Shown one piece after another: positions 26,669 through 44,113 of a stretch of 64,000 bases of DNA (position 1 is its first letter; every line of letters starts with the position of its first letter). A program made the position numbers and the translations under genes. Origin of the DNA: Polycyclovorans algicola TG408 (GTDB lineage Bacteria > Pseudomonadota > Gammaproteobacteria > Nevskiales > Nevskiaceae); the NCBI RefSeq assembly GCF_000711245.1, contig NZ_JOMH01000001.1, forward strand, positions 862,830-926,829, written 5' to 3'. The notes under the pieces are model-generated. The model did not search any database. It was not told where the DNA came from and saw only the letters and a program-made list of their open reading frames with translations.

Positions 26669-27064
26669 CTAACGACCGCCGAACGCGGCGGCAGCCACCG
26701 CCGTGTTCATGAAGTCGCGAAAGTGCAGCCACTTGCCGTCCCGCAGGGTGATGACGTGGACGAAGTCCGACTCGATCTCGCCGCCGGTGCTGCGGGCGGT
26801 AAGCCGCAGATGCCCGGTGACGATGACCTTGTCGCGCTCGGCGATGAACTCCTCGGCATCGAACTGGTGAATGTCGACCGAGCTGAGCACCGTGTCGAAG
26901 AAGCGGGTCGCGCCAGATTTGCCTTCGTAATGACCGGCATAGGGAATGACCGACGGGCCGTAGAAGTCGATGACGATGTCGGGGTGCATCATCTCGACGA
27001 TGGCGGGCACATCGCCGCGACCGAAGCGGACAAAGATTTCCTGGGTGGCTTCGACATTGTTCAT
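26669..27064 (-). CDS. SnoaL/NTF2-like small protein
   Basis: 131 residues, NTF2-like fold. Pattern: EIFVRFGRGDVPAIVEMMHP near the start, YAGHYEGKSGATRFFD in the middle and a C-terminal strand VHVITLRDGKWLHFRDF. Members are small-molecule isomerases, cyclases, hydratases or plain ligand-binding proteins; the sequence does not reveal which. The start overlaps the P450 stop by 4 bases (ATGA), so it is translated with it and likely acts on the same substrate. Confidence 0.7.
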   Translation of the reverse strand: MNNVEATQEIFVRFGRGDVPAIVEMMHPDIVIDFYGPSVIPYAGHYEGKSGATRFFDTVLSSVDIHQFDAEEFIAERDKVIVTGHLRLTARSTGGEIESDFVHVITLRDGKWLHFRDFMNTAVAAAAFGGR

Positions 27065-28287
27065 GGGTTCAGTCCTTCAAGCGTGGCGGGCAGGTGGGTC
27101 ACGCTGTGCTGCAGCAGGGTGGCCGTCTGCGGGGTGGGCGGCGTGCTGCCGCGGCGCAGAGCGGTGCAGCGGTCGAGCAGGCCTTCGATCAGGCAGGCTG
27201 TTTCGAGATTCGCCAGCGGCGCGCCGAGGCAATAGTGAATGCCGTGGCCGAAGCTGAGGTGCTGGCCTGAATTCTCGCGGTCGAGCCGGAAGCGGGCCGG
27301 GTCCGGGAAGGCGGCGGGATCATGGTTGGCGGCGGCGAAGAACAGCGCGATCCACTCGCCTTCGCGGATGGTCTTGCCGCCGATCTCGACATCGGTCAGA
27401 GCCTTGCGGAACAGGCGCTGCGGCGGGCCACTGAGGCGCAGGGTTTCGGCCTGGAACTTGCCGATCAGGCTGCGATCCTGCTGCAACTGGGCGAAGACCT
27501 CGGGGTGTTCCAGCAGCATGTTCAGACAATTGGCTGCGTAGTACATCGTGGTCTCGCTGCCGGCCACGACCAGGGTGAAACAGAAGCGCCAGACTTCATC
27601 GTGGGTCAGCTTTTCGCCGTCGGCCTCGGCGGTCAGCAACGCGTCAATCAGGTCGCCAGACGGCTCGGCGCCGGCATGCAAACGCGCGGCGCGCTCGGCG
27701 ACGATGCCCTGGAAGTACCGCACCATGTCGATGTTGCTTTGGTTGCGTTCCTCCGGCGGCATGTCGGTGGACAACATGAAGGCGTTGGCCCAACGCTGGA
27801 ATGGATCGGCCATGTCATTGGGCAGGCCCAGCAGCCGCACCATCAGGCGTGCCGGCAGCGGCGCGCACAGGGTCGAGACCAGATCGACTTCACCGCCCGG
27901 CAGCGCGTTGATCAAGTCGGCCACCACCTGCTCCACGTGCGGCCGCAGTTCGCGCACGCGCTTCATGGTGAAGGCCTGAATCACGATCTTGCGCAGGGCT
28001 GCGTGCTCGGGGTCGTCGTGGTTGACGAGCATCAGGCTGGGCGCGCCGGTGTCCTGCTGAAAGTTGGCGGACGAGAAGCGCACGTGGTCTTTCGATGCGG
28101 CGACCACATGGGCGTGCTGCAGCAAAGCCCAGGCCTTGAGCGGCGCGTCCTGCCCCGGCACCGTGCCGGGCGGCCAGTCGGCATATCCACTGACCGGCGA
28201 TTGGGCGCGCAGGGCATCATAGGCCGGGTAGGGATTGGCGATGACGTTGGCGGTGGCCAAGTCCTGTGGTGGAAATTGTGTGCTCAT
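27061..28287 (-). CDS. Bacterial class I cytochrome P450
   Basis: Soluble haem monooxygenase, 408 residues. I-helix AGSETTMYYAAN, ExxR-type helix in FQAETLRLSGPP, haem-binding loop FGHGIHYCLGAPLA with the axial Cys. No ferredoxin or ferredoxin reductase gene lies next to it. The sequence resembles CYPs acting on terpenoid, steroid or alkyl substrates, but I cannot assign a CYP family. It diverges from a MarR-like gene 58 bp away; between them ACGGG and CCCGT (28307-28323) form a small inverted repeat that could be the operator. Confidence 0.88.
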   Translation of the reverse strand: MSTQFPPQDLATANVIANPYPAYDALRAQSPVSGYADWPPGTVPGQDAPLKAWALLQHAHVVAASKDHVRFSSANFQQDTGAPSLMLVNHDDPEHAALRKIVIQAFTMKRVRELRPHVEQVVADLINALPGGEVDLVSTLCAPLPARLMVRLLGLPNDMADPFQRWANAFMLSTDMPPEERNQSNIDMVRYFQGIVAERAARLHAGAEPSGDLIDALLTAEADGEKLTHDEVWRFCFTLVVAGSETTMYYAANCLNMLLEHPEVFAQLQQDRSLIGKFQAETLRLSGPPQRLFRKALTDVEIGGKTIREGEWIALFFAAANHDPAAFPDPARFRLDRENSGQHLSFGHGIHYCLGAPLANLETACLIEGLLDRCTALRRGSTPPTPQTATLLQHSVTHLPATLEGLNP

Positions 28288-28345
28288 GGTGTTCCTCCAG
28301 AACGTGACGGGACGAATGCCCGTTTATTATTGAAAATCAGAAATT

Positions 28346-28969
28346 ATGTCCCGAAGACAAGATAGTCCTGCCGCCACGAAGCGGTCAAGTCGTGCCGCGC
28401 AAGCGGCGCAGGCTCCCGTCGTTTCGCAGGAGGCGAAAGATTTCGTCGAGCTCTTTTACCCGGTGCATTACAAGATCGGCATCGGCATTGAAGACGCCCT
28501 GCGCGGCGGGCGTTTGAGCCGTCATCAGGTCGCGATCCTCTGGTTGATTCGCAACGAGGGCGAGGGCGGACGCAGCCTGGCGCGCAAGGAGATCGAGCGC
28601 TCAATTACCCGCTGGTTTGAGATCGGCAACTCGGCGATCTCCAAGACCCTGCGGGTGATGGCGCGCCCCCCCTTCAAGTTGCTGGACGTGCGGGTGCACC
28701 CCGAGTCCGGCCGCGAGCGCGAGGTGGTGCTGACCGCGCGAGGCGTCACCGAGATCGATCAGATGGTGGTACGCGGACAGGCGTTCGTGCAGCTCATGGT
28801 GAACCACCTCAGCGTCCCGGAAGCCTTGGACGGCGTTCACTTTCTGACCCGGGTGAGCGACATCATCGACCGCGTGGCGCCGGCCATTCGTGAGGTCGGC
28901 GGGTCTGCGGGCAAGCCGCCCAGACGTGCCGCCGCAAGCGGTCGAAAAAAGGTCAGCGCCGAGTCGTGA
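28346..28969 (+). CDS. MarR-like winged-helix regulator next to P450
   Basis: 207 residues. The N-terminal tail is basic (SRRQDSPAATKRSSRAA), followed by a winged-helix domain with GGRLSRHQVAILWLIRN and the recognition region RWFEIGNSAISKTLRVMA, and a basic C-terminus (RRAAASGRKK). MarR proteins bind aromatic or lipophilic ligands and usually repress a divergent gene; here the divergent neighbour is the P450. The spacing between starts is only 58 bp, so binding at one site could control both. Confidence 0.65.
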   Translation: MSRRQDSPAATKRSSRAAQAAQAPVVSQEAKDFVELFYPVHYKIGIGIEDALRGGRLSRHQVAILWLIRNEGEGGRSLARKEIERSITRWFEIGNSAISKTLRVMARPPFKLLDVRVHPESGREREVVLTARGVTEIDQMVVRGQAFVQLMVNHLSVPEALDGVHFLTRVSDIIDRVAPAIREVGGSAGKPPRRAAASGRKKVSAES

Positions 28970-28999
28970 TGCCTGGCACTACAAGCCAGCCGCGACGCG

Positions 29000-29593
29000 T
29001 CAGGTTGGCGAGGACAGGTCGAGCGGTTGGTCGCTCAAACTCGCGATGGCCTGCTTGACCTTGCTCAGCCCGCGCGACATCGCATCGCGCTCTTCGGGCG
29101 TCAGGCCGGCGAAGATGTGATTGTTGAACTGCACCTCGAGCTGGGTCATCCGCTCAATCAGGGCCTGCGCCGGTTTGGCAAGGTAAACCCGCTTTGCACG
29201 GCGGTCGCTGGGGTCGGGATGGCGCACGATCCAGCCGGCTGATTCCAGGCTTTCAATCACGTCGCCGAGGCTGGCTTTGCCGACTTCGAGCACGTCGGCA
29301 AGCTGTGTCTGCATCATGCCGTCGTGGCGCGTCAGGTGCGCCAGCACCCACCACTGGGCGCGGGTGACGCCCAGCGGCTTCATGTGCTGGTCGTACGCGC
29401 TGCGACGCATGCGTGACACGTCATGCATCAGAAAGCTGAGGCGGATGCCGCTGCGTGCCAGGTCATCGGCGACGTGCGGCCCAACCTCAGGGCTTTTCGC
29501 GCCGCGGGTGAGCGACACGTCATGAGTGCCTCGGGCCTTTGCGATGGCCTTGACCACCTTCTCAACCGTCGCAATCTTGCGTTGCCGTGCCAC
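29000..29593 (-). CDS. MarR-family regulator with N-terminal extension
   Basis: 197 residues. Winged helix at about 75-165: LGVTRAQWWVLAHLTRHDGM, TQLADVLEVGKASLGDVIE and the wing DPSDRRAKRVYL. About 40 residues precede the usual MarR start (KVVKAIAKARGTHDVSL). The start is GTG with GGAG six bases upstream. It converges on the other MarR-like gene with 30 bp between stops, and diverges from the phosphotransferase gene; which genes it controls is not shown. Confidence 0.75.
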   Translation of the reverse strand: MARQRKIATVEKVVKAIAKARGTHDVSLTRGAKSPEVGPHVADDLARSGIRLSFLMHDVSRMRRSAYDQHMKPLGVTRAQWWVLAHLTRHDGMMQTQLADVLEVGKASLGDVIESLESAGWIVRHPDPSDRRAKRVYLAKPAQALIERMTQLEVQFNNHIFAGLTPEERDAMSRGLSKVKQAIASLSDQPLDLSSPT

Positions 29594-29903
29594 ATTATTC
29601 TCCGCTCGGTGAGGAACCCATCATGGCCTGCGAAGACCGCGAGTTAAGGGTGAGTTTCGATCGGATGATATCGTTATTTCTGTCAGAAACGTGCTTGCCG
29701 GGCCCGACGTGATATGCCTTCAGGCGGGAATGGACGAAAACGCAAGCCCATGAAGTGCTTGATCTTCCAATCGAACGAAGCGGCAGCAGCGACATAAATA
29801 ATATGGTGCCTTATCATGGCATCGCGACTGTTTTGACCCATCACAACGACTGCAGGGCGGGGCGCACGACCTAGCAGCGAGCCTATTCAAGGAGATCAAT
29901 GTA
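29594..29903. promoter_or_regulatory. Divergent non-coding region, MarR gene and phosphotransferase gene
   Basis: These 310 bp hold no plausible gene. The middle is AT-richer (GACATAAATAATATGGTGCC near 29792-29812). The strong ribosome-binding site AAGGAGAT lies before the phosphotransferase start. I did not find a clear -35/-10 pair or palindrome. Confidence 0.4.
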
Positions 29904-31100
29904 ATGCCCGTCGTCGACAAGAACCGGCCATCCCCCGAATGGATTGCCGAGTTGCGCAGGCGCTTTCCCGTCGAGCGCGAGATCGACCGCATTCTCACCC
30001 GCAAGCTGACGCTTCGATCCGGCCCCGGATTCGAACCGCAAACGCTGGAGCCGCTGGTCGCATCCGTCACCCGTCTGATCACCCACAACATCGGTGACAA
30101 CTTCAAGATATCGGGGGCCAAGTGGCTGTCGGGTGGTGCGTCGAAATTGCAGATGTCATTTCGGCTGGACTGGGACCGCCCCGGCGTTGGTCGCGAGCAA
30201 ACCCGCATGGTGCTGCGCATGGAGCCGGCGGCGTCCATCGTCGAGACCAGCCGTCTGCGCGAGTTTCAGCTCATCAAGGCGCTCGACGGCACGGTGGCGG
30301 TGCCGCCGGTGTTCTGGTGCGACGCCGATGCCGAGTTCTTGCCCTACCCGGCGCTGATCTACGGGTTTGCCGAGGGCGTTGCTAAGCCCAGCCAGTCGGG
30401 CGACAAGGTGTCGGGCCTGGGGACCTTCATCCCGCCAGATTTGCGCGCCAAGCTGGCGCCGCAGTTCGTGGCCGACCTCGCCAAGATTCACACCTTTGAT
30501 TTTTCCAAGGCCGATCTCAGTGCCTTTGACGTGCCGCAACCGGGGCCGGAGTGCGCCGAGTGGGGCATCAACTGGTGGGAGCGCGTCTGGGAAGAAGACT
30601 GCGACGAAGACTCGCCGCTCATGCGCCTTTGCGCCGGATGGCTGCGCCGCAACAAGCCGTCGCTGGATCGGCCGGTGATCGTCCACGCCGACTACCGCTC
30701 GGGCAACTTCCTGTTCAACGAAAGCGACGGTCGCATCACCGCATGGTTGGACTGGGAGCTGGGCCGCATCGGCGACCGGCATCAGGACCTTGCATGGACC
30801 ACCAGCCATGCGTTCGGCCACTACGACACCGACGGCAAGACCTTCCTGGTCTGCGGCATGCAACCTGAGTCAGCCTTCTTCGAAGACTACGAAAAGGCCT
30901 CGGGGCTGAGCGTGGACCCAAAGTCGGTGCACTGGCACAAGGTCTACAACGATTTCATGATGGTGACGCTGGTGCTGGCCACCGGCTACCGCGTTGCCCG
31001 CGGCGGCAAGACCCACCAGGACGTGCTCGTCACCTGGTTGATGGGCATCGGTGCGCTCTTGCAGGAAGAAATGCGCGGTCTCATCGAGAAAGGAGCCTGA
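29904..31100 (+). CDS. APH-like phosphotransferase (acyl-CoA-metabolism type)
   Basis: Kinase-like protein, 398 residues, of the aminoglycoside-phosphotransferase fold. The catalytic loop HADYRSGNFLFN and metal motif WLDWELGRIGDRHQDLAW are intact; the N-lobe has KWLSGGASKLQMSF. The closest functional class is the ACAD10/11-like kinase domain family, which in bacteria often lies in lipid or steroid catabolic loci; an antibiotic target is unlikely. Strong AAGGAGAT upstream. It is followed 1 bp later by a small gene that travels with it. Substrate unknown. Confidence 0.75.
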   Translation: MPVVDKNRPSPEWIAELRRRFPVEREIDRILTRKLTLRSGPGFEPQTLEPLVASVTRLITHNIGDNFKISGAKWLSGGASKLQMSFRLDWDRPGVGREQTRMVLRMEPAASIVETSRLREFQLIKALDGTVAVPPVFWCDADAEFLPYPALIYGFAEGVAKPSQSGDKVSGLGTFIPPDLRAKLAPQFVADLAKIHTFDFSKADLSAFDVPQPGPECAEWGINWWERVWEEDCDEDSPLMRLCAGWLRRNKPSLDRPVIVHADYRSGNFLFNESDGRITAWLDWELGRIGDRHQDLAWTTSHAFGHYDTDGKTFLVCGMQPESAFFEDYEKASGLSVDPKSVHWHKVYNDFMMVTLVLATGYRVARGGKTHQDVLVTWLMGIGALLQEEMRGLIEKGA

Positions 31101-31101
31101 C

Positions 31102-31632: not shown

Positions 31633-31641
31633 GCGTGCACC

Positions 31642-31671
31642 CCATGCCGCGCCGTGACGCGCGCGGCATGG
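31642..31671. terminator. Hairpin between convergent genes
   Basis: CCATGCCGCGC (31642-31652), a loop of 8 bases, and the exact complement GCGCGGCATGG (31661-31671). It lies between two convergent stops 44 bp apart. No T-run follows on either strand, so it may end transcripts with Rho or other help. Confidence 0.7.
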
Positions 31672-31676
31672 GCACG

Positions 31677-32462
31677 TCAAGGCATCGCGAAGCCGTTGAC
31701 GCCGTAGCCGGCGGCTTCGGGAATTTCCAGCCACATCCCCTCGGGGCGTTCGACCGACACCGGCTGCACGGTGACGATGGGCTGGGTGCGGGCGGCTGCC
31801 AGCGCCTCGCCGACGTGCGCTTGCTGCCCGAGTTTCTGTACGTTGAGCAGGGTCGCGGGCACCACCGTGCGTCGACCGGCGGCGGCGTCTTCAATCACGT
31901 CGGCCGGCCGCAGCCACGCCGAATCGACCGCCTCAAAGCCGTCGTGCAGCGCCACCTGCTCGGCCGGCGCCGCCGCCAGATAAAAGTAGGTGTCGAAGCG
32001 TTTCGGCATGAAGGTGGGGGTGATCCAGTGGGCGAATGGCACCAGCGCGTCGACACACAACCGCAGGTCCTCGGCTTCCAGCATGTCGGCAATGCCCAGC
32101 TCGCCCTGGTCCAGCGCTCGCCGGTATTGATCGCCAAGTTGCGTCACCCGGGCCACATCGACAAGCGCCGAGCCCGCCCCGGTGCGCGCCAACAGCAGGC
32201 CACACTCCTCGAATGCTTCGCGTATGCCGCAGACCCGCAGCGCCAGTTCGTCGTCTGACAGGGTTTCGGCACCGATGCAGCGCGCACGCACGCGGGGATC
32301 GGTGTCGCCGGCCGCGAGCTTGCCGCCCGGGAATACCAGCGCGCCAGAGGCGAAGTCGATCTGCTGGTGTCGCACCACCATGAACACCTCCATGCCCTCG
32401 GCACCTTCACGCAGCATCAAGATGGTCGCGGCCAGGCGCGTGGTCTGTACGGGTTCGGTCAT
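31677..32462 (-). CDS. NUDIX hydrolase, NUDT19-like
   Basis: 261 residues. NUDIX core with LVFPGGKLAAGDTDP and the catalytic helix GIREAFEECGLLLAR; an insertion separates the GG from the RExxEE helix, as in the NUDT7/NUDT19 type that hydrolyses CoA esters. A CoA or acyl-CoA diphosphatase role would suit a locus with acyl-CoA ligases, but is inference. Single gene on the minus strand; starts upstream of the sulfotransferase in divergent orientation. Confidence 0.75.
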   Translation of the reverse strand: MTEPVQTTRLAATILMLREGAEGMEVFMVVRHQQIDFASGALVFPGGKLAAGDTDPRVRARCIGAETLSDDELALRVCGIREAFEECGLLLARTGAGSALVDVARVTQLGDQYRRALDQGELGIADMLEAEDLRLCVDALVPFAHWITPTFMPKRFDTYFYLAAAPAEQVALHDGFEAVDSAWLRPADVIEDAAAGRRTVVPATLLNVQKLGQQAHVGEALAAARTQPIVTVQPVSVERPEGMWLEIPEAAGYGVNGFAMP

Positions 32463-32647: not shown

Positions 32648-33829
32648 ATGAGCACAGCAACTGAAGCGGTGACCCTGCCCAACACGGTGCCCGAGGTGAT
32701 GGCTGCCGCATGCCAGATGGCCGGGCTGGACGACTTTGGTGATCGCCAGTTTGTGGAGGGCCTGACCCGGGTGCTCGACGGTTTTCGCAACGAGGCGCAG
32801 CTCAGCGCCATCGGCGAGCAGCTCGCCTACGGCGGCGTGATCAACATGCTGGTCAACCGGCTGCGCTACGTCCGCGACATCAAGGCGCACCCGGAAATTC
32901 TCGACGAGAAGATCGACCGGCCCATCGTCATCCTCGGCCTGCCGCGCACCGGCACCACCAAGCTGCAGCGGGTGCTGTCGGCCAGTCCGCAGGCCCTGGC
33001 AATGATGTACTGGCGGATGATGAACCCGGCGCCGTTTCCCGGTGAAGACCCGGACAACCCCATCGAGCGCATCCAGATGGCACGCGATGCGGTGCAGATG
33101 ATCACCGCGCAGTTTCCCGGCTTCGTCGCTCGGCATCCCACCGAGGCCGAGGTGCCCGACGAGGAAGTGCTGCTGATGCAGGGCTCCTTCCAGTGCGTGG
33201 TGACCTGGCTGTTCGCGCGCATGCCGTCGTTCTACGACTTTTCGATGAACACCGACCAGCGGCCGCTCTATGATTTTCTGCACGGCCAGATGCAATACAT
33301 GCAGTGGCAGCAGGGCGGCGCGCGCGGCCGATCGTGGGTGATGAAGTCGCCCTGCCATACCGGCGTGCTGGACACCCTGCTGCAGGTGTTCCCCGACGCG
33401 GTGGTGGTGCACTGCCACCGCGACGCCGAGGTCATTCTGCCGTCCATGTGCGGCCTCACCGAAGAGATGCGCCGTGTGCACAGCGATCACATCGACCGCG
33501 CGGTGATCGGCCCCGAGATGCTCGACTACTTCGGCACCAACATGGACCGCTATCTGGCGATTCGTGACGCGCTACCGGCTGATCGGATTCTTGACGTGCA
33601 TTACCAGGAAATCGTTGACGACGTCGCCAGCGTGATCCGCCGCATCTACGCCCGCGCCGGGCGCGAGGTCGATGCCGAAACGCTGGCCAACGCCCGTCAG
33701 TTCGAGGAACAGCGACCCCAGCATTACCTCGGCAGCTATCGCTACGCCGCCCCCGATTACGGCCTGACGCCCGCGATGATCAACGCGCGTTTCGCCGACT
33801 ACCGCCGCCGCTTTGCCGGCTTTCAATGA
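32648..33829 (+). CDS. Sulfotransferase-family protein
   Basis: 393 residues, P-loop-like sulfotransferase fold. The 5'-phosphosulfate-binding motif is GLPRTGTTKLQRVL near residue 100; the 3'-phosphate region is near WVMKSPCHTGVL. In catabolic loci of sphingomonads and actinobacteria, proteins of this family are common beside oxygenases and DUF1214 proteins, but few have known substrates. The ATG at 32648 is preceded by GGATGGAGA; longer in-frame starts lack a good site. No PAPS-synthesis genes nearby. Confidence 0.75.
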   Translation: MSTATEAVTLPNTVPEVMAAACQMAGLDDFGDRQFVEGLTRVLDGFRNEAQLSAIGEQLAYGGVINMLVNRLRYVRDIKAHPEILDEKIDRPIVILGLPRTGTTKLQRVLSASPQALAMMYWRMMNPAPFPGEDPDNPIERIQMARDAVQMITAQFPGFVARHPTEAEVPDEEVLLMQGSFQCVVTWLFARMPSFYDFSMNTDQRPLYDFLHGQMQYMQWQQGGARGRSWVMKSPCHTGVLDTLLQVFPDAVVVHCHRDAEVILPSMCGLTEEMRRVHSDHIDRAVIGPEMLDYFGTNMDRYLAIRDALPADRILDVHYQEIVDDVASVIRRIYARAGREVDAETLANARQFEEQRPQHYLGSYRYAAPDYGLTPAMINARFADYRRRFAGFQ

Positions 33830-33870: not shown

Positions 33871-35058
33871 ATGCCCCATACCCCCCGCCTGAAAGATCAA
33901 AGCTTCGCCACGCCCGACGTCTGGAAAACCGTCACCAAAGCCATGGGCGAGCTGGAAAAGCTCGTCTGGGATGACCCGCGCGTCGCTGATGATCTGACCC
34001 GTGCCGAGGGCGCGCGCCAGCTCACCCGCCTGATCGGTGGCGCGATGCCGATCACCATGGAAACGGTGGACCCGAATCATCCGCAGTTTCTGCAACTGCT
34101 GAGCACCCAGATTCAGTGGGGACTGCCCTCGGCCGACTGTCATTACCTGTGGGCGCCGCTGCACGGCGACAACGTCTACCGCATCGTCGGCGACCGTGGC
34201 ACGGCACGGCTGTTCGACATCGAGATTCGCAACGGCACCTTCGCCTATCTGGCCGAGTGGAGCTTGCATTCGCGCCTGGGCCACGTCGAGACCGGACCGG
34301 GCAACCAGGTGGAGATCTTCCTCAGCCGCAAGCGTCCCGCGGGTGCGCTCAACTGGGTGGAACTGCCGGAAGGCCGCTGCGACATTGTGCTGCGCCAGTA
34401 TTTTTACGACTGGGACACCGAGCAGATGGCGCGTCTGTCCATCGTCAACGACAACGCCGTGTATCCGCCGCCGCCGCTTTCCGCCGACACCATTCGCCAG
34501 AACCTTGAGCGCTTCTGTGACTTCCTCGAACAGGTGCCGCCGGTGTTCCGCCAATCGGTCGAGGTTTACTACCAGCAGCCGCCCAACCAGATGGCGTTTC
34601 ATGCCATCGACTACGGCTTTCGCGCGCTGACCTACGGCAAGGGCACCTACGACTGCAGGCCGGATGAAGCGCTGATTCTCGAAGTCAAACTGCCCAAGAC
34701 CCACTACTGGAACATCCAGCTTGCCAGCCATTTCTGGGAAGCGCGCGACTTCCACCTGCGGCAGAACGCGCTCAACGGCCATCAGGCGCAGGTCGATGCC
34801 GACGGCATGTTCCGCGCGGTGATCTCGCATCAGGACCCCGGCGTTGCCAACTGGCTGGATGCCGGGGGGCACGCACAGGGCCTGGCCACCATCCGCTATT
34901 ACGAGGCCGACACGACGCCGATTCCCACGGTGCGCCGCGTCAAGCTCGCCGAACTGGACGGCGCACTGCCCGCCGACACCGTGCGCGTCACGCCAGAACA
35001 GCGGCAGCGAATTCTGCGGAATCGGGCCTGGGCCATGCAGCGCATGGGCCGCAATTAA
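33871..35058 (+). CDS. DUF1214-domain protein
   Basis: 395 residues. The C-terminal half carries the DUF1214 pattern (ALILEVKLPKTHYWNIQLAS, FWEARDF and ISHQDPGVANWLDAGGHAQG). Function unknown for the domain. No signal peptide or membrane segment seen. The ATG with AGGAG six bases upstream is chosen over a GTG 18 bases earlier. It follows the sulfotransferase by 41 bp and precedes an SDR by 32 bp, so the three probably form one operon. Confidence 0.7.
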   Translation: MPHTPRLKDQSFATPDVWKTVTKAMGELEKLVWDDPRVADDLTRAEGARQLTRLIGGAMPITMETVDPNHPQFLQLLSTQIQWGLPSADCHYLWAPLHGDNVYRIVGDRGTARLFDIEIRNGTFAYLAEWSLHSRLGHVETGPGNQVEIFLSRKRPAGALNWVELPEGRCDIVLRQYFYDWDTEQMARLSIVNDNAVYPPPPLSADTIRQNLERFCDFLEQVPPVFRQSVEVYYQQPPNQMAFHAIDYGFRALTYGKGTYDCRPDEALILEVKLPKTHYWNIQLASHFWEARDFHLRQNALNGHQAQVDADGMFRAVISHQDPGVANWLDAGGHAQGLATIRYYEADTTPIPTVRRVKLAELDGALPADTVRVTPEQRQRILRNRAWAMQRMGRN

Positions 35059-36151: not shown

Positions 36152-38935
36152 ATGCCGCGCAAGAAGGCTGCCAGCCCGACGCATGCCCGCGTCATCCGCA
36201 CCAAGTTCGAGCCCCCCCGGGCGTCGCGACGGACGGTGCCGCGCGACCGTGCGCTCAGCCTTTTGAGTCTGGGGGCCGAACGGCTGCTAACCGTGCTGCG
36301 CGCCCCTGCCGGCTTCGGCAAGACCACGGTGCTCGCCGACTGGCGCGGCCAGCGGTTGGCCGCAGGACGCCCGGTGGCGTGGCTGACCCTGGACGAAGAC
36401 GACAACGACCCTGGCTCGTTCGTCCATTACGTGATCCGGGCGCTAAGTGACGCGCTGGGCGAGTTGGCCGACCACGCGCCCGAGCTCTCGGCCGACCCCG
36501 AGAGCGCGCCGCCCAAGGTGATGCTCACCTCGCTGATCAACGCGCTGGACACCATCGACGCGCCGGTCACACTGATTCTCGATGACTACGACCGTATCTC
36601 GGCGGCGGTCATCCACGACCTGTTGTCATTCCTGCTGCTGCACGCGCCCGACACCCTGCATGTGGTGATCGCCGCACGCGCCGAGCCGCCACTGCCGCTG
36701 GCCTACCTGCGCGCCCACGACGACCTGGTGGAGATCGACGCCAGCCACCTGCGTTTTGACCTCGATGATGCGCGGCGTTTCTTTGGCGAGGTGGCCGCAC
36801 TCAACCTCGATGCCGGCCAGTCACGCGCCCTGCACGACGCCACCGAAGGCTGGGTGGCGGGCATGCAACTGGCGGCGATTTCACTGCGCGACCAGACCGA
36901 TGCGTCGCGGGTCATCGACGCGCTGCCCGGCCGCTTTCGCGCGATCAATGACTACCTTGCCGAGGCGGTGCTGCCCAGCCTGGCCCCGCACACCGTTGAG
37001 TTTCTGCTGCGCAGCGCCATCCTCGAACGCTTCAACGGTCCGCTCTGCGAGGCGGTGACCGGTCGCACCGATGCCGCCGACCAACTGGCGGGTTTGCATC
37101 AACGCAACGCCTTCGTGCAATCGCTGGATGATGCGCAGCGCTGGTTCCGCTTCCACGCGCTGTTCCGTGATTTTCTGCGGGCTGAGCTGCTGCGCCGCTT
37201 CCCGGACGAGGTGATCCCCCTGCACACCCGCGCGGCCCACTGGTTTGCCGGGCAGCGGCTGTGGGCCGAGGCGGTGCGCCATGCGCTCGCGGCCGAGCGA
37301 CTCGATCTTGCTGCCGAGTGGGTCGAGCACTGTGCGATGCGCGAGGTCGAAGACAGCCGCGTGCACGTGTTGCTGACCTGGGCGCGCAAGCTGCCGCCGC
37401 CGGCCATCCGTGCGCGGCCCCGCCTGCGCCTCGCGGTGGCCTGGGCGCTGCTGCTGACCATCGAGCTGGACGCCGCCATGGCCATCGTCGACGACCTGGA
37501 CGCGCAAGGTGAATCGTTGGCGCTGGCCGAGCATGGGCTGGACCCTGCGGCGGTCGAATCCGAACTGCTGGCGCTGCGTTTCTGCATCACCGCGCTGCAG
37601 GACGACACCGTCGGCGCGTTGCCATTCGGTGAGCAATTTGTCGAACGCCTGCGCGACGGCACGGCCGGCGACGAACCGGTGGTCTGGGCGGTGCAGGCCA
37701 CGCTCAACGGCCTCACGCACTGCTACCAGAAGGCCGGGCGGGTGGCCGAGGCGCGCACCATGCAGAGCGCCGACTTGTACCCGCTGTCGCGTGACCGCAC
37801 ACGCAACCTGTTCACCCAGTGTTACCGCGCCGCGACGCTGAGTGCCTGTGACCTGCGCGAAGCCCAACTCTTCGAGGCCGCCCGCCGCCTGCGTGAAGCG
37901 CTGGCGCTGGCCGAACGCCACGCCGGCCGACGCTCCGCCGCCGCGACGCTGGTGGCGTGCTCGTTGGCGGCCCTCCACTACGAGTGGAACCAGCTTGATG
38001 AGGTCGACCAGTTGCTCGCCGACCGGCTCGATATCGTCGACGAGGCCTGTTACCTGGATTCGGTGCGCTCAGCCTACCTGTCGCTCACGCGGCTGGCCAT
38101 GGTCCGTGGCGACCATGACACTGCCCATGCACTGCTTGATCGTGGCGAGCTGCTCGCCAACCGGCGCGGCTGGGGCCGCTTGACCGCCGTGTGTCTGGCC
38201 GAGCGGGTGCGTCTGTATCTGCTCGAAGACCATCCGCTGGACGCCCGCGCAGCGCAGGTCCGGCTTGAAGGGCTGCTACCAGCCCGCGCGCCGGACGCGC
38301 TGGGCGCCGCCTCGGAAACCTGGCGGGTAATGGCCATTGCGCGCGCCCGCACCCGGTTGCATGCGGGGCGCGCCATTGATGCGGTGACCGCGCTCGAAGG
38401 CGTGATGGACGACGCCCGCGAAGACCGCAGCCCCTACCTTGATGCGCGAACCCGCGCCCTGCTGGCCGTCGCCCTCGACCGCGCCGGGCGGCCGGACGAC
38501 GCCCAGATCCAGGTTGTCAAGCTGCTGCAATTGGGCGCGGCCTCCGGTCTCATCCGCTCGCTGGCCGACGAGGGCGAGGGCTTCGCCAGACTGCTGCGAC
38601 GCCTGCCGGAGACCGCATGGCCGCAAACACCGGCGGCGTTGAAATGGCGCGACCAGCTACAGACTGTGCTCGGCATTTCCGCCGGCGCGGCACCCAAGGC
38701 GCGCAGCGCGGTGACCCTGATCGAACCGCTGAGCAAGCGCGAACTGGACGTGCTGACGCTGATCGCCCGCGGGCTGTCCAACGAGCAGGCGGCGCGCGCC
38801 CTGCAACTCGGTGCCGAGACCGTGAAATGGCACCTGAAAAATGTTTACGGAAAGCTGGGGGTGTCGCGGCGCACCCTCGCCGTGCACCGCGCCCGGCAGA
38901 TGGCCTTGATCTCTGACGACCCGCCGCCGTCCTGA
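36152..38935 (+). CDS. MalT-type LuxR-family transcription activator
   Basis: Large ATP-dependent regulator, 927 residues. Walker A APAGFGKTT (51-59), Walker B TLILDDYDRI (about 140-149), long helical repeat region (about 400-840), C-terminal LuxR helix-turn-helix LSKRELDVLTLIARGLSNEQ and ETVKWHLKNVYGKLGVSRRT. MalT-like proteins are signal-transduction ATPases (STAND class) that activate transcription on binding an inducer. Strong GGAGGAGA just before the ATG. It is probably the local regulator of the flanking operons on the plus strand. A small GC hairpin lies after the stop (38939-38955). Confidence 0.88.
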   Translation: MPRKKAASPTHARVIRTKFEPPRASRRTVPRDRALSLLSLGAERLLTVLRAPAGFGKTTVLADWRGQRLAAGRPVAWLTLDEDDNDPGSFVHYVIRALSDALGELADHAPELSADPESAPPKVMLTSLINALDTIDAPVTLILDDYDRISAAVIHDLLSFLLLHAPDTLHVVIAARAEPPLPLAYLRAHDDLVEIDASHLRFDLDDARRFFGEVAALNLDAGQSRALHDATEGWVAGMQLAAISLRDQTDASRVIDALPGRFRAINDYLAEAVLPSLAPHTVEFLLRSAILERFNGPLCEAVTGRTDAADQLAGLHQRNAFVQSLDDAQRWFRFHALFRDFLRAELLRRFPDEVIPLHTRAAHWFAGQRLWAEAVRHALAAERLDLAAEWVEHCAMREVEDSRVHVLLTWARKLPPPAIRARPRLRLAVAWALLLTIELDAAMAIVDDLDAQGESLALAEHGLDPAAVESELLALRFCITALQDDTVGALPFGEQFVERLRDGTAGDEPVVWAVQATLNGLTHCYQKAGRVAEARTMQSADLYPLSRDRTRNLFTQCYRAATLSACDLREAQLFEAARRLREALALAERHAGRRSAAATLVACSLAALHYEWNQLDEVDQLLADRLDIVDEACYLDSVRSAYLSLTRLAMVRGDHDTAHALLDRGELLANRRGWGRLTAVCLAERVRLYLLEDHPLDARAAQVRLEGLLPARAPDALGAASETWRVMAIARARTRLHAGRAIDAVTALEGVMDDAREDRSPYLDARTRALLAVALDRAGRPDDAQIQVVKLLQLGAASGLIRSLADEGEGFARLLRRLPETAWPQTPAALKWRDQLQTVLGISAGAAPKARSAVTLIEPLSKRELDVLTLIARGLSNEQAARALQLGAETVKWHLKNVYGKLGVSRRTLAVHRARQMALISDDPPPS

Positions 38936-39423: not shown

Positions 39424-39428
39424 CGCGC

Positions 39429-40754
39429 ATGCGCCCCGAGACGCCCGCCAATACCCGCCTGCTTAACGCCCCGCTGACGCTGCCCTGCGGCGCGGTTCTG
39501 CGCAACCGGCTCGCCAAGGCGGCGATGACCGAAGGCCTGGCCGATGCCGATAACCGCGCCACCGAACGCCATCTGCGCCTCTACCAGCGGTGGGCGGCCA
39601 ACGACTTTGGCGTGATGCTGACCGGCAATGTTCAGGTTGACCGGCAACACCTGGAGCGCCCCGGCAACATCGCCATCGACGGAAACGGTGGACTCGATCA
39701 GTTGCGGGCGCTGGCACGCGTCGCCACCGCGAATGGCGCGCACTTCTGGATGCAGATCAACCATGCCGGTCGCCAGACCCCGGCGGCGATCAACGCACAG
39801 CCCCTGGCACCGTCGGCGATCTCGCTGCCAATGGCCGAGGCCGGTTGTGGCCAGGCGCAGGCGATGAGCGTCGCGCAGATTCGCGACGTCATTCGCCGCT
39901 TTACGCATGTGGCGGTCACTGCGCGTGAATGTGGCTTTACCGGGATTCAACTGCACGCTGCGCACGGGTATCTGATCTCGCAGTTTCTCAGCCCGCTCGC
40001 CAACCAGCGCGATGACGAATGGGGCGGCCCGCTGGAAAACCGCGCGCGGCTGCTGATGGAGATCGTCAGGTCGGTGCGGCGCGCAGTGGGGGCCGACTTC
40101 CCGATCTCGGTCAAGCTCAACTCGGCCGACTTCCAGAAAGGCGGATTCAGCTTTGAGGAATCGATGCAGGTGGTGCGCTGGCTCAGCGACGCCTCAATTG
40201 ACCTGCTGGAAATCTCCGGCGGCAACTACGAGCAGATGCAGATGGTCGGGCTGGGCGAGCAGGCGCAGACCGCCGGGCGCCCGGTGGTGGCCAGCACCGC
40301 CGCACGCGAGGCCTACTTTCTCGACTACGCGCGGCAGATCCGTCCGCTGGCCAACATGCCACTGATGATCACCGGCGGCATGCGGACCCTGGCCACGATG
40401 AACGAGGCCCTGCAGTCCGGCGCCTGCGAAATGGTGGGCATCGGCCGGCCCATCTGCGTCGATCCCGACCATGCGGTGGGCCAACTGCTGCGTGGTGAGG
40501 TCGACGCCTTGCCGACGGTCGAACATGGCCTGCAACTGGCGCCCGGCGCGCTGGGGCCCGATGCTGACGCCGCGCTGTTCAAGCGCATCGAATCCTTCGG
40601 CCTGCTGGGCTGGTTCTGCCTGCAGTTGCTGCACCTCGGCGAAGGCCGCGCGCCAGACCTGCAGATGAGCGTGCTTGACGCCCTGCACGCCTACAAGGCC
40701 AACGAGACCGAGGCCGCCGCCGCGTGGGTGCGGCCGGTGCGCGAACTGGCCTGA
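39429..40754 (+). CDS. Old-yellow-enzyme-family flavin oxidoreductase
   Basis: NADH:flavin oxidoreductase/TIM-barrel protein, 441 residues. FMN-barrel pattern with NRLAKAAMTEGLADADNR at the start, WMQINHAGRQ, GFTGIQLHAAHGYLISQFLS and PLMITGGMRT. The substrate histidine pair appears as QLHAAHGYL. The length exceeds classic NemA enzymes; the extra C-terminus is helical, and no [4Fe-4S] cysteine cluster of the 2,4-dienoyl-CoA reductase type is seen. Reduction of an activated C=C bond is likely. Confidence 0.8.
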   Translation: MRPETPANTRLLNAPLTLPCGAVLRNRLAKAAMTEGLADADNRATERHLRLYQRWAANDFGVMLTGNVQVDRQHLERPGNIAIDGNGGLDQLRALARVATANGAHFWMQINHAGRQTPAAINAQPLAPSAISLPMAEAGCGQAQAMSVAQIRDVIRRFTHVAVTARECGFTGIQLHAAHGYLISQFLSPLANQRDDEWGGPLENRARLLMEIVRSVRRAVGADFPISVKLNSADFQKGGFSFEESMQVVRWLSDASIDLLEISGGNYEQMQMVGLGEQAQTAGRPVVASTAAREAYFLDYARQIRPLANMPLMITGGMRTLATMNEALQSGACEMVGIGRPICVDPDHAVGQLLRGEVDALPTVEHGLQLAPGALGPDADAALFKRIESFGLLGWFCLQLLHLGEGRAPDLQMSVLDALHAYKANETEAAAAWVRPVRELA

Positions 40755-40895
40755 GCATCCAACCCGCGACGAGGTGATCTTCGGTGCAGGGTTGGCGTCA
40801 CCTGTTGCCCGTCGCGGCGTTATTCTTTGGACCTTTCCGGCGTAACAAGATCCCTTCACCGGGGCGGCGCCATTGATCCCGTGGAGGAGACCCCG

Positions 40896-42460
40896 ATGCA
40901 GCCGAAGATCCTTGCGCAACCTGAGCGCATTCACCCCGAAGGCATGGCCGAGTGGTTTCGTCGCCGCGCCATGCGCGCGCCGGAAAAGCCCGCGCTCAGC
41001 TTCCAGGGTGAAACGCTGACCTATGGCGAGTTCCAGACGCGCATCGAACGTGCCGCGGCCATGTTGGCGGCCGGCGGTGTGCAGCGCGGCGATCGTGTCG
41101 CGGTGCTGGCGTTCAATCACCCGCAGACCCTGGTGCTGTTGTTTGCGGCCTCGCGCATCGGCGCCATTCTGGTGCCGCTCAACTACCGACTTTCGCCGGT
41201 GGAGCTGCGCGACATCATCATCGACGCCGGTGCCCACACGCTGATCTCCGACGCCCGCAATGTCGAGGCCATCGACAGCGTTCGCGGCGCACTCGGCTGC
41301 CAGCGGCATCTGCTGTTTGGCGGCAGCCGTGACGGCTGGGAATCAATGGAGGCCGCACTGGCCGCCGCACCCGCGAGCGTTGCCTTGATGGGCGGTCAGC
41401 CCGACGACATGGCCGTGCTGATCTACACCTCCGGCCCCACCGGGCGGCCCAAGGCGTGATGCTGTCGAATCGCAATTTCTGGGGCAACAACGCCAACTGG
41501 CTGCTGACCTCGGACTACACCTCGCGCGACGTGACCCTGAACATGGCGCCGCTGTTTCACGTTGGCGGGCTATGCGTGGTGTTGCTGGTCACTTTTTTGG
41601 TCGGCGGCCACAACATCCTGCATGACGGCTTCGAGCCGGGCGCATTTCTCGATGACCTTGAGCGCTACAAGGTGACGGTGACCTTCACCGTGCCGGCGAT
41701 GATGCTGTTCGCCAGTCAGCATGAAAAGTTTGCCGGCACCGATCTGTCCAGCCTGCGGATGATTGTCGCCGGCGGCGCGCCGGTGCCCGAGCCGCTGCTG
41801 AAAACCTATGCCGCGCGCGACGTGCCGGTCAGCCAGTGCTACGGCATGACCGAGGCCACGGCGGGGGTCACCTTCCTCGAAACCACCCGCGCCGCCACCA
41901 AGCTGGGCTCTTGTGGGCGGCCCGGCATGCTCACCGAGGCCAAGCTGATTGACGCCGATGGACGCGAGATCACCGAGCCGGACACGCCCGGCGAGCTGTG
42001 CATGCGTGGCGGCAACGTGACGCAGGGTTACTGGAACATGCCCGAGGCCACCGCGCAGGTGCTGAGTGCCGATGGCTGGTTCCGCACCGGCGATGTGGCG
42101 CGGCGCGATGCCGAGGGGTTCTACACCATCTGCGACCGCACCAAGGATATGATCATCAGCGGCGGTGAGAACATCTATTCCGCCGAGGTCGAGAGCGTGC
42201 TCTACGGCCACCCAGCCATCGCCGAGGCAGCGGTGATCGGCATTCCCGACGAGAAGTGGGGCGAAACCGTGCTGGCCATCGTGGTGCCCAAGGCGGGGCA
42301 GTCGATCACGCTCGAAGAGCTGCGCGACTTCGCCGCCCAAAGCCTGGCGCGCTTCAAGCTGCCGCGCGTGCTGGAGGTCATCGACGTGATGCCGCGCAAC
42401 TCCAACGGCAAGGTGCAGAAGCCGCAGTTGCGCGAGCGCTTCGGCGCCACGAAGGCCTGA
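40896..42460 (+). pseudogene. AMP-forming acyl-CoA ligase, frameshifted at the P-loop
   Basis: ANL-family ligase that would be 521 residues with one base restored. The first frame reads to VLIYTSGPTGRPKA and stops at 41459. The second frame continues at once with MLSNRNFWGNNANWLLTSDY and runs to 42460 with all later motifs: CYGMTEATAGV, GWFRTGDVARRDAEGFY, the DRTKDMIISGGENIYSAEVE block and PRNSNGKVQKPQL. A missing G at 41453-41454 (AAGGCGTG instead of AAGGGCGTG) explains the break. The P-loop also reads TSGPTGRPK where TSGTTGRPKG is expected. It may be real decay or a homopolymer sequencing error. GGAGGA precedes the start. Confidence 0.85.
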
Positions 42461-42496
42461 CGACGTCGACGCCCGGTCGCAGCATGAGGCCGGGCG

Positions 42497-44113
42497 TCAG
42501 CGTATTTCGAAACCCTCGTAGCCCTTCTGGGCAACGTCTTCACACGCCTGCCGATAGTTGCCCACGTGGATGTAGGACAGCACGCGGCGCGGCTTGCCTT
42601 CGATGTTGGCCCCGGTCCACCACGAGTCGACCTTGGCGATCAGCGTCGCGCCGGTCACTTCATCGTGATGTTTGACCCAGTTGTCTTCGAACGCCTGGGT
42701 GGCCTCGATCACCTTGGCCGTGCCGGCCTTTTCGACGTGGGCGATGCAGTCGGTGATCCATTCCACCTGCTGCTGCAGGCAGGTTGGCACGTTGCAGAAT
42801 GCGGACGCTGGTGCCAGCGGCGCGGCCGAGGTGAAAAAGTTGGGGAAGCCATGCTTCTGCAGGCCCATGGCCGTGGTGATGTCGCGGCCCCAGAGTTCTT
42901 TTAGCGAAACGCCGTCACGGCCGCGAATATCGATGGCATTGATCGCCCCGGTGCCGGCGTCGAACCCGGTGGCCAGCACGATGATGTCCAGCGGGTATTC
43001 GCCATCCCGGGTGCGGATGCCGGCCTCGGTAATGCACTCGATGGGCGCTGCCTTGAGGTCAACGAGGTGCACGTTGTCGCGGTTAAAGGCTTCCAGATAG
43101 CCGCTGTCCAGCGGCGGCCGCCGCGTGCCGAAGCCGTATTGCGGAATCAGCTTGTCGGCAACGCCTGGCTTGGTGATGCGGGCGCGCATCTTCTCGCGCA
43201 TGAATGCCGAGAGCTCTTCGTTGGCGACCGGGTCGACCAGCACCTCGGCGAAATTGCCGCCCCACATGATCAGCGAGCCGTCGGCGTACAGCGCCTCGAA
43301 AATGGCACGCCGCTCATCGGCCGTGGTTTCGGCCCAGGGCTTGGGGTGCATGTCGAAGGCAAAGCCGGTCAGCGAATGTTTTACCGCCTCGCCCAGCGCC
43401 TTGTACCGCGGACGAAGTGTGGCGCGGTCTTCGTCGCTCAACGCATGGTTGCGCATCGGAATCGCGTAGGTCGGTGTGCGCTGAAACACGAAGAGCTCGC
43501 CCACCTGCCCGGCGATGGTCTGGATCACCTGCACGCCGGTGGCCCCGGTGCCGATCACCCCGACGCGCTTGCCGGACAAGTCGATGCCGCCCTTGGGCCA
43601 GCGCGAGGTGTGCAGGAAGCGACCCTTGAAGTTCTCGTGCCCTTTGAAGGGCGGCACTTTCGGCTCTGACAGCGGCCCCAGGCACGACAGCAGATAGCGG
43701 CAATGGATGGATTCGCCCTGATCGGTGGTCACCGTCCACAGGTCGGTCGTGTCGTCCCAGTGAGCCGACGCCACACGGCTGTTGAAGCGGATCAAGGGGC
43801 GAAGCTTCAGGCGGTCGGTCACAAAGTTCAGATACCGCTCGGTCTCTTCCTGGGCGGGAAAGCGCTCACTCCAGTTCCAGTCGTTGAGCAGCTCGTCCGA
43901 GAACCAGTATTGATAGACCTCGGAGGCGGAGTCGGTGCGTGCGCCGGGGTAGCGGTTCCAGTACCAGGTCCCGGCCACCCCGCTGCCGGCCTCGAGTCCG
44001 CGCACGTTCAAGCCCATTTCACGCAGTCGGTGCAAGGCGTAGAGGCCGGCAAAGCCGGCGCCGATCACCACGGCGTCGAGCGTGTCGTTGGCGGTGTTTG
44101 CGGGCATGTTCAT
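42497..44113 (-). CDS. Flavoprotein monooxygenase, Baeyer-Villiger type
   Basis: NADPH-dependent flavin monooxygenase, 538 residues, of the cyclohexanone-monooxygenase-like group. FAD site GAGFAG (18-23), Baeyer-Villiger fingerprint FKGRFLHTSRWP (162-173), NADP site GTGATG (188-193). It would insert oxygen next to a ketone to give an ester or lactone. The start ATG has AAGGAGA ten bases upstream; the frame is open much further but the N-terminus fits this start. It converges on the acyl-CoA ligase gene, which is damaged. Confidence 0.88.
   Translation of the reverse strand: MNMPANTANDTLDAVVIGAGFAGLYALHRLREMGLNVRGLEAGSGVAGTWYWNRYPGARTDSASEVYQYWFSDELLNDWNWSERFPAQEETERYLNFVTDRLKLRPLIRFNSRVASAHWDDTTDLWTVTTDQGESIHCRYLLSCLGPLSEPKVPPFKGHENFKGRFLHTSRWPKGGIDLSGKRVGVIGTGATGVQVIQTIAGQVGELFVFQRTPTYAIPMRNHALSDEDRATLRPRYKALGEAVKHSLTGFAFDMHPKPWAETTADERRAIFEALYADGSLIMWGGNFAEVLVDPVANEELSAFMREKMRARITKPGVADKLIPQYGFGTRRPPLDSGYLEAFNRDNVHLVDLKAAPIECITEAGIRTRDGEYPLDIIVLATGFDAGTGAINAIDIRGRDGVSLKELWGRDITTAMGLQKHGFPNFFTSAAPLAPASAFCNVPTCLQQQVEWITDCIAHVEKAGTAKVIEATQAFEDNWVKHHDEVTGATLIAKVDSWWTGANIEGKPRRVLSYIHVGNYRQACEDVAQKGYEGFEIR

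What the first reader, a model, noticed from the sequence alone, without database searches (positions are those of the whole stretch)
26669..44113. Uncharacterised oxidative gene cluster with sulfotransferase and DUF1214
P450, two NTF2-like proteins, an APH-like kinase with a small partner, NUDIX hydrolase, sulfotransferase, DUF1214 protein, SDR, old-yellow-enzyme homologue, CoA ligase and a Baeyer-Villiger-type enzyme, with MarR and MalT-type regulators. These classes together look like a pathway for a cyclic or terpenoid/steroid-type compound with a ketone step, but no single known pathway fits.
Basis: inference. Interest (0 to 1): 0.6.

Follow-up and report, generated by a model that had tools for sequence, protein, structure and literature searches.

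The report
Sulfotransferase–DUF1214 pair in catabolic clusters
The region is a patchwork of small gene sets, and its core is a widespread but uncharacterised pair (a sulfotransferase and its usual partner of unknown function) that also sits beside cholesterol-breakdown-type genes in mycobacteria, hinting that bacteria attach sulfate to intermediates while breaking down ring compounds.

Summary
In relatives (Nevskia/Hydrocarboniphaga type) the pieces lie apart as separate units: P450 + NTF2 + winged-helix; MarR + APH kinase + partner; NTF2 + old-yellow enzyme; a lone Baeyer-Villiger enzyme; and sulfotransferase–DUF1214–SDR. The CoA ligase is frameshifted here. The sulfotransferase–DUF1214 pair is the real find. 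In 7 genomes, 32 of 35 DUF1214 genes have a sulfotransferase within 1.5 kb (0.43 expected). Both gene orders occur, mostly with overlapping or nearly touching ends, and some loci carry a divergent sulfotransferase instead. Several distant lineages add sulfate-activation genes. The window sulfotransferase is nearest in structure to STF9 (M. avium) and STF1 (M. tuberculosis). In two mycobacteria the STF1-type trio follows hsaE/G/F-like genes. Best reading: PAPS-dependent sulfonation of an alcohol intermediate in ring-compound catabolism, DUF1214 acting on the sulfated product, perhaps eliminating sulfate (inferred). No paper in the held library contains both DUF1214 and sulfotransferase. Substrate and DUF1214 activity are unknown.

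The parts
32648..33829 (+). Sulfotransferase (Sulfotransfer_3, STF1/STF9 type); 5' PAPS loop GLPRTGTT, conserved K233, R258, S266
   Evidence: Pfam 2.2e-37; PDB 2zq5 E 4.4e-47; model pLDDT 94.5, STF9 Z 42.1 and STF1 Z 41.2; conserved columns
33871..35058 (+). DUF1214-type protein, usual partner of the sulfotransferase
   Evidence: Pfam 1.2e-07; model pLDDT 95.3; clear solved relatives 6ans, 3u07, 3vb9/2p3y are all uncharacterised; conserved columns
35091..35870 (+). SDR oxidoreductase, third gene of the trio
   Evidence: Pfam 6.4e-59; 54-77% identical and in the same order in the 7 loci L038-L044
39022..39423 (+). NTF2/SnoaL-like protein (NTF2b), pairs with OYE
   Evidence: Pfam SnoaL_2 1.6e-12; NTF2b-OYE pair in G004, G043, G006
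39429..40754 (+). Old-yellow-enzyme homologue (ene-reductase class)
   Evidence: Pfam 1.5e-52; 69-70% orthologs beside the trio in G004 and G043, without it in G006
26669..27064 (-). NTF2/SnoaL-like protein (NTF2a), P450 unit
   Evidence: Pfam 5.8e-16; unit kept in 4 of 4 relatives' loci
27061..28287 (-). Cytochrome P450, P450 unit
   Evidence: Pfam 3e-32; 70-72% orthologs in G004, G006, G017, G031, not beside a trio
28463..28969 (+). Winged-helix regulator, P450 unit
   Evidence: HTH_27 3.5e-05; divergent from the P450 in 4 of 4 relatives' loci
29000..29593 (-). MarR regulator, APH unit
   Evidence: Pfam 4.8e-14; divergent from APH in G006 and G017, 2 of 4 loci
29904..31100 (+). APH-type kinase, APH unit
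   Evidence: Pfam 3.2e-22; two paralogs in own genome
31102..31632 (+). Small partner of the APH kinase, no Pfam family
   Evidence: next to APH in all 5 copies in the 4 loci checked and in one own paralog
31677..32462 (-). NUDIX-like protein, not traced further
   Evidence: Pfam 9.4e-06
36152..38935 (+). MalT/LuxR-type regulator, not traced further
   Evidence: Pfam 6.7e-26 and 2e-15
40896..42460 (+). CoA ligase (AMP-binding), split by a frameshift at 41459 in the P-loop
   Evidence: G006 ortholog is one frame of 511 aa
42497..44143 (-). Baeyer-Villiger-type flavin monooxygenase
   Evidence: best PDB phenylacetone monooxygenase E 8.7e-152, also OTEMO and steroid monooxygenase; none of the finding's other genes found beside it in 3 of 3 relatives' loci

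Best explanation
The region is a mosaic of independently inherited catabolic units. Its core, 32648-35870, is a sulfotransferase-DUF1214-SDR module. Shown by sequence: the sulfotransferase and DUF1214 are co-inherited as a pair in actinobacteria, proteobacteria and myxobacteria. Well supported: the sulfotransferase uses PAPS to sulfonate an alcohol of an intermediate during breakdown of a ring compound (steroid, terpenoid or cycloalkane-like). Inferred: DUF1214 acts on the sulfated product, most likely eliminating sulfate to leave a double bond, while the SDR sets the oxidation state of a neighbouring carbon; in the window and in two relatives a nearby ene-reductase (OYE) with an NTF2 protein could then reduce that double bond. 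The scheme is a free-standing, catabolic counterpart of the ketoreductase-sulfotransferase-thioesterase step of curacin biosynthesis, where sulfation makes a leaving group. My share for the separate claims: real module 0.95; PAPS-dependent sulfonation 0.8; elimination by DUF1214 0.35.
For: Pairing: 32 of 35 DUF1214 genes in 7 genomes have a sulfotransferase within 1.5 kb, 0.43 expected (places); 27 of 29 loci of relatives (best DUF1214 match per genome) have one in the 1.5 kb flanks; 38 of 55 GTDB-wide loci with 3 kb on both sides have one within 3 kb, and 6 of the other 17 have a second kind (Pfam Sulfotransfer_3 in 3 of 3 tested; two of the six rest on a motif), so 44 of 55. Of 47 same-strand pairs 40 overlap or lie under 60 bases apart, 15 overlap by 4 bases, with predicted starts. 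Both orders occur (24 and 21 of 45) and pairwise distances agree, r 0.93, 0 of 2000 permutations; r 0.73 for divergent pairs. PAPS supply: cysD, cysN and cysQ beside the pair in 6 of 80 loci and in P. sprentiae, cysD-cysNC in Tsukamurella; the CysN is fused to APS kinase in both tested; a second cysD elsewhere in 3 of 5 searched host genomes. Catabolic setting: families of acyl-CoA dehydrogenase, CoA ligase, hydratase (label by eye) or thiolase in 29 of 80 loci; hsaE/G/F-like genes just before DUF1214-SDR-ST in two mycobacteria, that ST matching STF1 2zq5 at E 1.2e-222; Rv3531c listed as predicted required for growth on cholesterol (PMC6429209, passages) and a KstR motif with positive binding upstream of it (PMC1995591, passages). 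Curacin analogy: PMC5577590, passages. A type I sulfatase signature occurs in only 2 of 80 loci.
Against: No reaction, substrate or product is known. The DUF1214 fold matches clearly only uncharacterised structures, so nothing in the fold shows a lyase. 11 of 55 loci have no sulfotransferase of either kind within 3 kb. Of 9 plasmid loci opened (of 28 records), only P. sprentiae and Tsukamurella have the two genes adjacent or one gene apart; in four sphingomonads they lie about 3 to 10 kb apart and S. herbicidovorans has none annotated within 10 kb; Embleya L053 gave no sulfotransferase match; Novosphingobium RL4 was not analysed. cys genes are a minority. Two of 5 hosts keep cysD as a single copy, and the window genome has no match to this CysD, though it has APS kinase. 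OYE lies beside the trio in few genomes. 29 of 80 loci with the named acyl-CoA families means 51 without.
Confidence: 0.5

Rival explanations
1. Sulfation is a tag, not a leaving group: it keeps a hydrophobic intermediate soluble or trapped, and DUF1214 binds or carries the sulfated compound.
For: Sulfotransferase pairing and PAPS genes fit any sulfation; DUF1214 is a beta-rich fold with no characterised close relative.
Against: A type I sulfatase signature appears in only 2 of 80 loci, so removal of the tag is not evident; invariant polar residues (D89, Y92, Y103, R175, E184, N302, D322, N327, R342 in 14 members) suggest catalysis.
Confidence: 0.22
2. DUF1214 is a structural or regulatory subunit of the sulfotransferase and has no own chemistry.
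For: Close pairing, overlapping ends, co-inheritance r 0.93.
Against: The titles of 2z6v and 2zq5 name only the sulfotransferase; DUF1214 also occurs without either sulfotransferase kind in 11 of 55 loci.
Confidence: 0.15
3. The module is biosynthetic and makes a sulfated lipid or quinone, and only happens to lie in catabolic clusters.
For: Mycobacterial sulfotransferases with known roles make sulfated metabolites (PMC3141025, passages; Stf3 and sulfomenaquinone recalled).
Against: KstR site and cholesterol requirement reported for Rv3531c; acyl-CoA catabolic families around 29 of 80 copies; 11 DUF1214 places in one genome.
Confidence: 0.08
4. One reading: all genes from P450 to BVMO serve one pathway.
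For: They are contiguous here; Zhongshania L060 has APH-like (26%), the trio, NTF2 (51%) and a BVMO-like gene (28%) within 21 kb, and M. triplex L062 has the pair with CoA ligases and a P450; the G017 P450 unit has a CoA-ligase-like gene (34%) beside it.
Against: In relatives, orthologs of P450, APH and BVMO (about 57-85% identical) lie elsewhere as their own units, in G006 and G031 with no close trio in the genome.
Confidence: 0.12

Closest known systems
STF1 locus of mycobacteria (recalled as Rv3529c with Rv3530c and Rv3531c), KstR regulon
   Same: DUF1214, SDR and sulfotransferase on one strand; in M. triplex and M. colombiense it follows hsaE/G/F-like genes and the M. triplex ST matches STF1 2zq5 at E 1.2e-222
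   Different: Gene order DUF1214-SDR-ST against ST-DUF1214-SDR in the window; window ST about 30% identical to STF1; I did not read the M. tuberculosis genome itself; function unknown there too as far as the passages read show
Ketoreductase-sulfotransferase-thioesterase termination of curacin biosynthesis (CurM)
   Same: Works-like analogy: an SDR-type reductase, sulfation of a hydroxyl, then elimination (PMC5577590, passages); ST domain structures 4gbm and 4gox align at Z about 12, no better than other sulfotransferases
   Different: Domains of a polyketide synthase acting on a carrier-bound chain; no result here relates DUF1214 to a thioesterase
DUF1214/DUF1254 structures 6ans, 3u07, 3vb9, 2p3y
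   Same: Same fold for g38: 6ans Z 41.8; VPA0106 Z 14.1; VPA0735 Z 12-13
   Different: All uncharacterised by title; 6ans is from Burkholderia cenocepacia, its neighbourhood not examined
LvaA/LvaB and ACAD10/11-type kinase activation of hydroxy acids (recalled)
   Same: APH-type kinase with a small partner protein, as g34-g35
   Different: Not tested; g35 has no Pfam family

Membership tests
PAPS-dependent sulfotransferase (STF1/STF9 type) | Sulfotransfer_3 profile over the curated cut-off | tested here: met
   129.9 bits against 27
PAPS-dependent sulfotransferase (STF1/STF9 type) | Fold of solved STF1/STF9 | tested here: met
   Z 42.1 over 374 residues (STF9) and 41.2 over 358 (STF1)
PAPS-dependent sulfotransferase (STF1/STF9 type) | PAPS-binding residues kept (motif roles recalled) | tested here: met
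   G97, R100, G102, T103, R258, S266 invariant in 36 rows, K233 nearly so
PAPS-dependent sulfotransferase (STF1/STF9 type) | Transfers sulfate from PAPS | not testable with these tools
   No assay; cys genes beside relatives are indirect
DUF1214 (PF06742) | Profile match over the gathering score | tested here: met
   32.6 bits against 25, though the six-frame PF06742 search of the whole genome did not list this gene
STF1 operon of mycobacteria | Same three gene families together on one strand | tested here: met
STF1 operon of mycobacteria | Same gene order | tested here: not met
   ST-DUF1214-SDR here, DUF1214-SDR-ST in L139/L148
STF1 operon of mycobacteria | KstR control | not tested
   No KstR-type site was sought in the window
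Sulfonation-elimination step (CurM-like) | Elimination of sulfate from a sulfated hydroxyl | not testable with these tools
   Inference only

The most novel reading that the evidence does not exclude
DUF1214 is the founding member of a sulfate-ester lyase family: with a nearly constant sulfotransferase partner it removes hydroxyl groups from ring compounds by sulfonating and then eliminating them, a PAPS-paid dehydration used in steroid, terpenoid and hydrocarbon catabolism from mycobacteria to proteobacteria and myxobacteria, sometimes with its own PAPS factory.
Probability: 0.3. Interest if true: 0.87.

Novelty: new variant of a known kind. Interest (0 to 1): 0.64.

Why it matters
The trio's mycobacterial counterpart lies beside hsaE/G/F-like genes, and Rv3531c is listed as a hypothetical protein predicted to be required for growth on cholesterol (PMC6429209, passages). 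A conserved partner, a solved sulfotransferase fold and PAPS genes beside the pair in soil bacteria make the role of these orphan genes directly testable. If sulfation is a catabolic activation step, it would add a costly chemistry to bacterial ring degradation that I did not find described in the held library.

Tried and rejected
Single-pathway cluster: rejected as the main reading after the orthologs of P450, APH and BVMO were found apart from the trio in relatives. BaiE-like dehydratase for NTF2b: considered because OYE plus NTF2 resembles bile-acid dehydroxylation (recalled), but the PDB search at E 0.01 gave only 3fgy and TerC, so it stays a guess. TauD dioxygenase beside DUF1214 in L116 (L082 shares the family) suggested alkylsulfatase chemistry, but the best matches are taurine dioxygenases, with Rv3406 and AtsK lower. 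Viral occurrence: 34 pattern matches in viral contigs, none a relative. Single-protein scan of genome contigs: 9 pattern matches, no relative. NCBIfam: none of the rows shown for the finding's genes passes its cut-off (for SDR and CoA ligase only the best 25 rows were shown). Paper searches: DUF1214 with sulfotransferase 0 papers; DUF1214 alone 1 paper, off topic by its listing; Rv3529c 10, Rv3531c 5, Rv3530c 3 papers in listings; sulfotransferase with catabolism, leaving group, elimination and PAPS 0; of 25 listed papers (27 found) on steroid degradation terms, 23 do not contain the word sulfotransferase; two searches were read as listings, apart from PMC5577590 passages; one search gave PMC3141025, read in passages, which names stf1 without a role. 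PMC4810484 was searched for Rv3529, Rv3530 and Rv3531: none. Nothing outside this library was searched.

Limits: the 80 GTDB loci are the best 80 of 546 relatives, themselves from a capped list, so they lean to close ones. In one search, 7 genomes were counted: G004, G017, G043 and G020 were picked because they held close or many DUF1214 genes, G146 and G147 because they came from the scan; the other DUF1214-bearing genomes and G148 and G149 were not counted, because no sulfotransferase search was run on them; two matches of one G146 gene were merged. Copies in one genome are not independent, so the printed probability is not a fair significance. The 29 loci are those returned for relatives among 48 genomes with a match. 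Rows left out: one search counts 60 of 80 loci, one search counts 55 of 80, only pairs with complete genes within 2.5 kb. Of 28 plasmid records 9 were opened. Chance expectation for cys genes was not computed. The P-loop and sulfatase signatures are recalled motifs; the sulfotransferases of L064, L068, L074 and L083 rest on that motif alone.
Full report
What is there. A codon-based gene model with Pfam and NCBIfam scans confirms every class in the finding at 26669-44143. The genome is one contig of 3.65 Mb. Relatives in its family include contigs that match records named Nevskia and Hydrocarboniphaga by length and place, so it is a Nevskiaceae-type gammaproteobacterium; the species is not known to me. 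Upstream (16059-26420) lies what looks like a meta-cleavage aromatic pathway (Pfam), downstream an Entner-Doudoroff sugar operon. The CoA ligase is broken into two frames at 41459 within its P-loop, whereas the G006 ortholog is one open frame of 511 aa. I cannot tell mutation from assembly error.

It is a mosaic. I searched relatives with OYE, APH, BVMO and P450 (61 genomes each) and read the neighbourhoods of 12 of the best orthologs. P450, NTF2a and the winged-helix regulator keep together in 4 of 4 loci (66-79% identity); in G004 and G017 the trio is on other contigs, and G006 and G031 have no close DUF1214. APH and its small partner keep together in all 5 copies of 4 loci and in the window genome's own paralog at 3.32 Mb, with MarR in 2 of the 4; in G017 APH is on the trio's contig but 96 kb away. 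BVMO orthologs (82-85%) show none of the finding's other genes within about 7 kb in 3 of 3 loci. NTF2b–OYE is a pair in G004, G043 and G006, beside the trio in the first two. In G006 a CoA ligase ortholog lies near APH, and in G017 a CoA-ligase-like gene (34%) beside the P450 unit. NUDIX and MalT were not traced.

The core module. Sulfotransferase–DUF1214–SDR keeps its order at 44-77% identity in 7 Nevskiaceae loci: G017, G043 (three, two of them cut short by contig ends), G004, G053 and a second copy in the own genome at 2.09 Mb. L045 (G047) holds only part of DUF1214 with SDR and NTF2b and no sulfotransferase found. A third own copy of DUF1214, ST and SDR at 2.39 Mb follows a hydrolase, FAA-hydrolase, acetaldehyde dehydrogenase and aldolase; the last two are 93% and 96% identical to the window's g19 and g20. 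In whole-genome counts 32 of 35 DUF1214 genes in 7 genomes have a sulfotransferase within 1.5 kb, 11 of 11 in M. triplex and 7 of 10 in the Hydrocarboniphaga-like genome, with 0.43 expected. Conversely 32 of 75 sulfotransferase places are so paired. In 29 loci of relatives (best DUF1214 match per genome), 27 have a sulfotransferase in the 1.5 kb flanks. In the GTDB-wide set of 80 loci, 38 of 55 with 3 kb on both sides have the STF1-type within 3 kb and 6 more a divergent sulfotransferase with a different P-loop (Sulfotransfer_3 confirmed for 3 of 3 tested; L074 and L083 by motif only). Counting contigs too short for that test, 12 of 30 loci without the STF1-type show the second kind. Eleven of the 55 have neither: L066, L070, L071, L081, L082, L087, L101, L103 (one at about 3.7 kb), L105, L114, L116. 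Both gene orders occur (24 and 21 of 45 pairs); distances agree at r 0.93 against a permutation maximum of 0.23, and 0.73 for divergent pairs, though shared genome history adds to this. Forty of 47 same-strand pairs overlap or lie within 60 bases by predicted starts. On plasmids the picture is looser: of 9 loci opened, adjacency or a one-gene gap was seen in P. sprentiae and Tsukamurella, distances of about 3 to 10 kb in four sphingomonads, none annotated in S. herbicidovorans, no match in Embleya, and one was not analysed.

Link to sulfate activation. The Paraburkholderia sprentiae plasmid carries a kinase, SDR, MarR, alcohol dehydrogenase, DUF1214, sulfotransferase, VOC protein, CysQ, CysD and CysN in a row; that CysN has an APS kinase domain. 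A Tsukamurella plasmid has cysD and an APS-kinase-fused cysN divergent from DUF1214–SDR–sulfotransferase. Among the 80 loci, L079, L085, L094, L110, L115 and L124 have cysD, cysN and cysQ. A further relative (L033) has a CysN match in the flank, and L045 one nearby. A second cysD elsewhere exists in G150, G152 and G154, not in G151 and G153; L110's genome was not held. The window genome has an APS kinase but no match to this CysD.

Link to the mycobacterial cholesterol locus. The model of the window sulfotransferase (pLDDT 94.5) aligns best with STF9 of M. avium (2z6v, Z 42.1) and STF1 of M. tuberculosis (2zq5, Z 41.2). In M. triplex L139 and M. colombiense L148, homologs of FAA hydrolase, acetaldehyde dehydrogenase and aldolase are followed, after about half a kilobase, by DUF1214–SDR–sulfotransferase; the M. 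triplex sulfotransferase matches 2zq5 over 379 residues at E 1.2e-222. The Tsukamurella trio is 53-69% identical to these. [quoted passage not shown] That STF1 is Rv3529c, and that hsaE/G/F precede Rv3531c, is recalled; I did not read that genome. Such lower meta-cleavage genes also occur in other aromatic pathways, so the neighbourhood alone does not prove a steroid role.

What DUF1214 may do. The model (pLDDT 95.3) clearly matches only uncharacterised structures (6ans Z 41.8; 3u07 14.1; 3vb9 and 2p3y 12-13; next row 4.8). Across 14 divergent members D89, Y92, Y103, R175, E184, N302, D322, N327 and R342 are invariant among polar residues; in 73 members six of these stay invariant and Y92, E184 and N302 are kept in at least 90%, as for an enzyme. 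Sulfation can serve elimination, as in curacin biosynthesis, where a ketoreductase, a sulfotransferase and a thioesterase act in turn (PMC5577590, passages). An SDR, a sulfotransferase and DUF1214 would be a parallel set, and OYE could then reduce the new double bond. This step is inference; tagging or a subunit role remain possible. Type I sulfatase signatures are rare (2 of 80 loci).

Novelty. In the held library no paper contains both DUF1214 and sulfotransferase, and 23 of the 25 papers listed do not contain the word sulfotransferase. Subscription papers and preprints were not searched. I rate it a new variant of a known kind: known enzyme classes in a widespread partnership that I did not find described.

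Noticed in passing
window 41457-41461: Frameshift in the P-loop of the CoA ligase splits it into 187 and 333 aa; the G006 ortholog is intact.
   Followed up: partly
window 16059-18127 and L049:5378-7488: Acetaldehyde dehydrogenase and aldolase exist in a second copy, 93% and 96% identical, at about 2.39 Mb, just before another DUF1214-sulfotransferase-SDR set with a P450 next to it.
   Followed up: partly
window 29904-31632, L048:9170-10904, L047:10244-11422: APH kinase has two paralogs in the genome (58% and about 41% identical); the first keeps the small partner, which has no Pfam family.
   Followed up: partly
L066, L070, L071, L082, L116: DUF1214 genes without sulfotransferase in Rhodococcus/Nocardia-type genomes lie beside a family with an MFS transporter (Pfam tested in L066) or a TauD-family dioxygenase (tested in L116).
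   Followed up: partly
L062:11167-12768: In M. triplex a 533 aa protein with a PEP-utiliser mobile domain follows DUF1214; L063 has a relative.
   Followed up: no
L038, L039, L040, L042, L043, L058: One regulator family (AraC type, Pfam tested in L039) lies upstream of the sulfotransferase in these Nevskiaceae copies; the window copy has a NUDIX gene there instead.
   Followed up: partly
window 5140-5415, L048:11036-12022, L049:18076-19044: A 91 aa window ORF matches longer ORFs elsewhere in the genome at 75-96%, probably a remnant of a repeated element.
   Followed up: no
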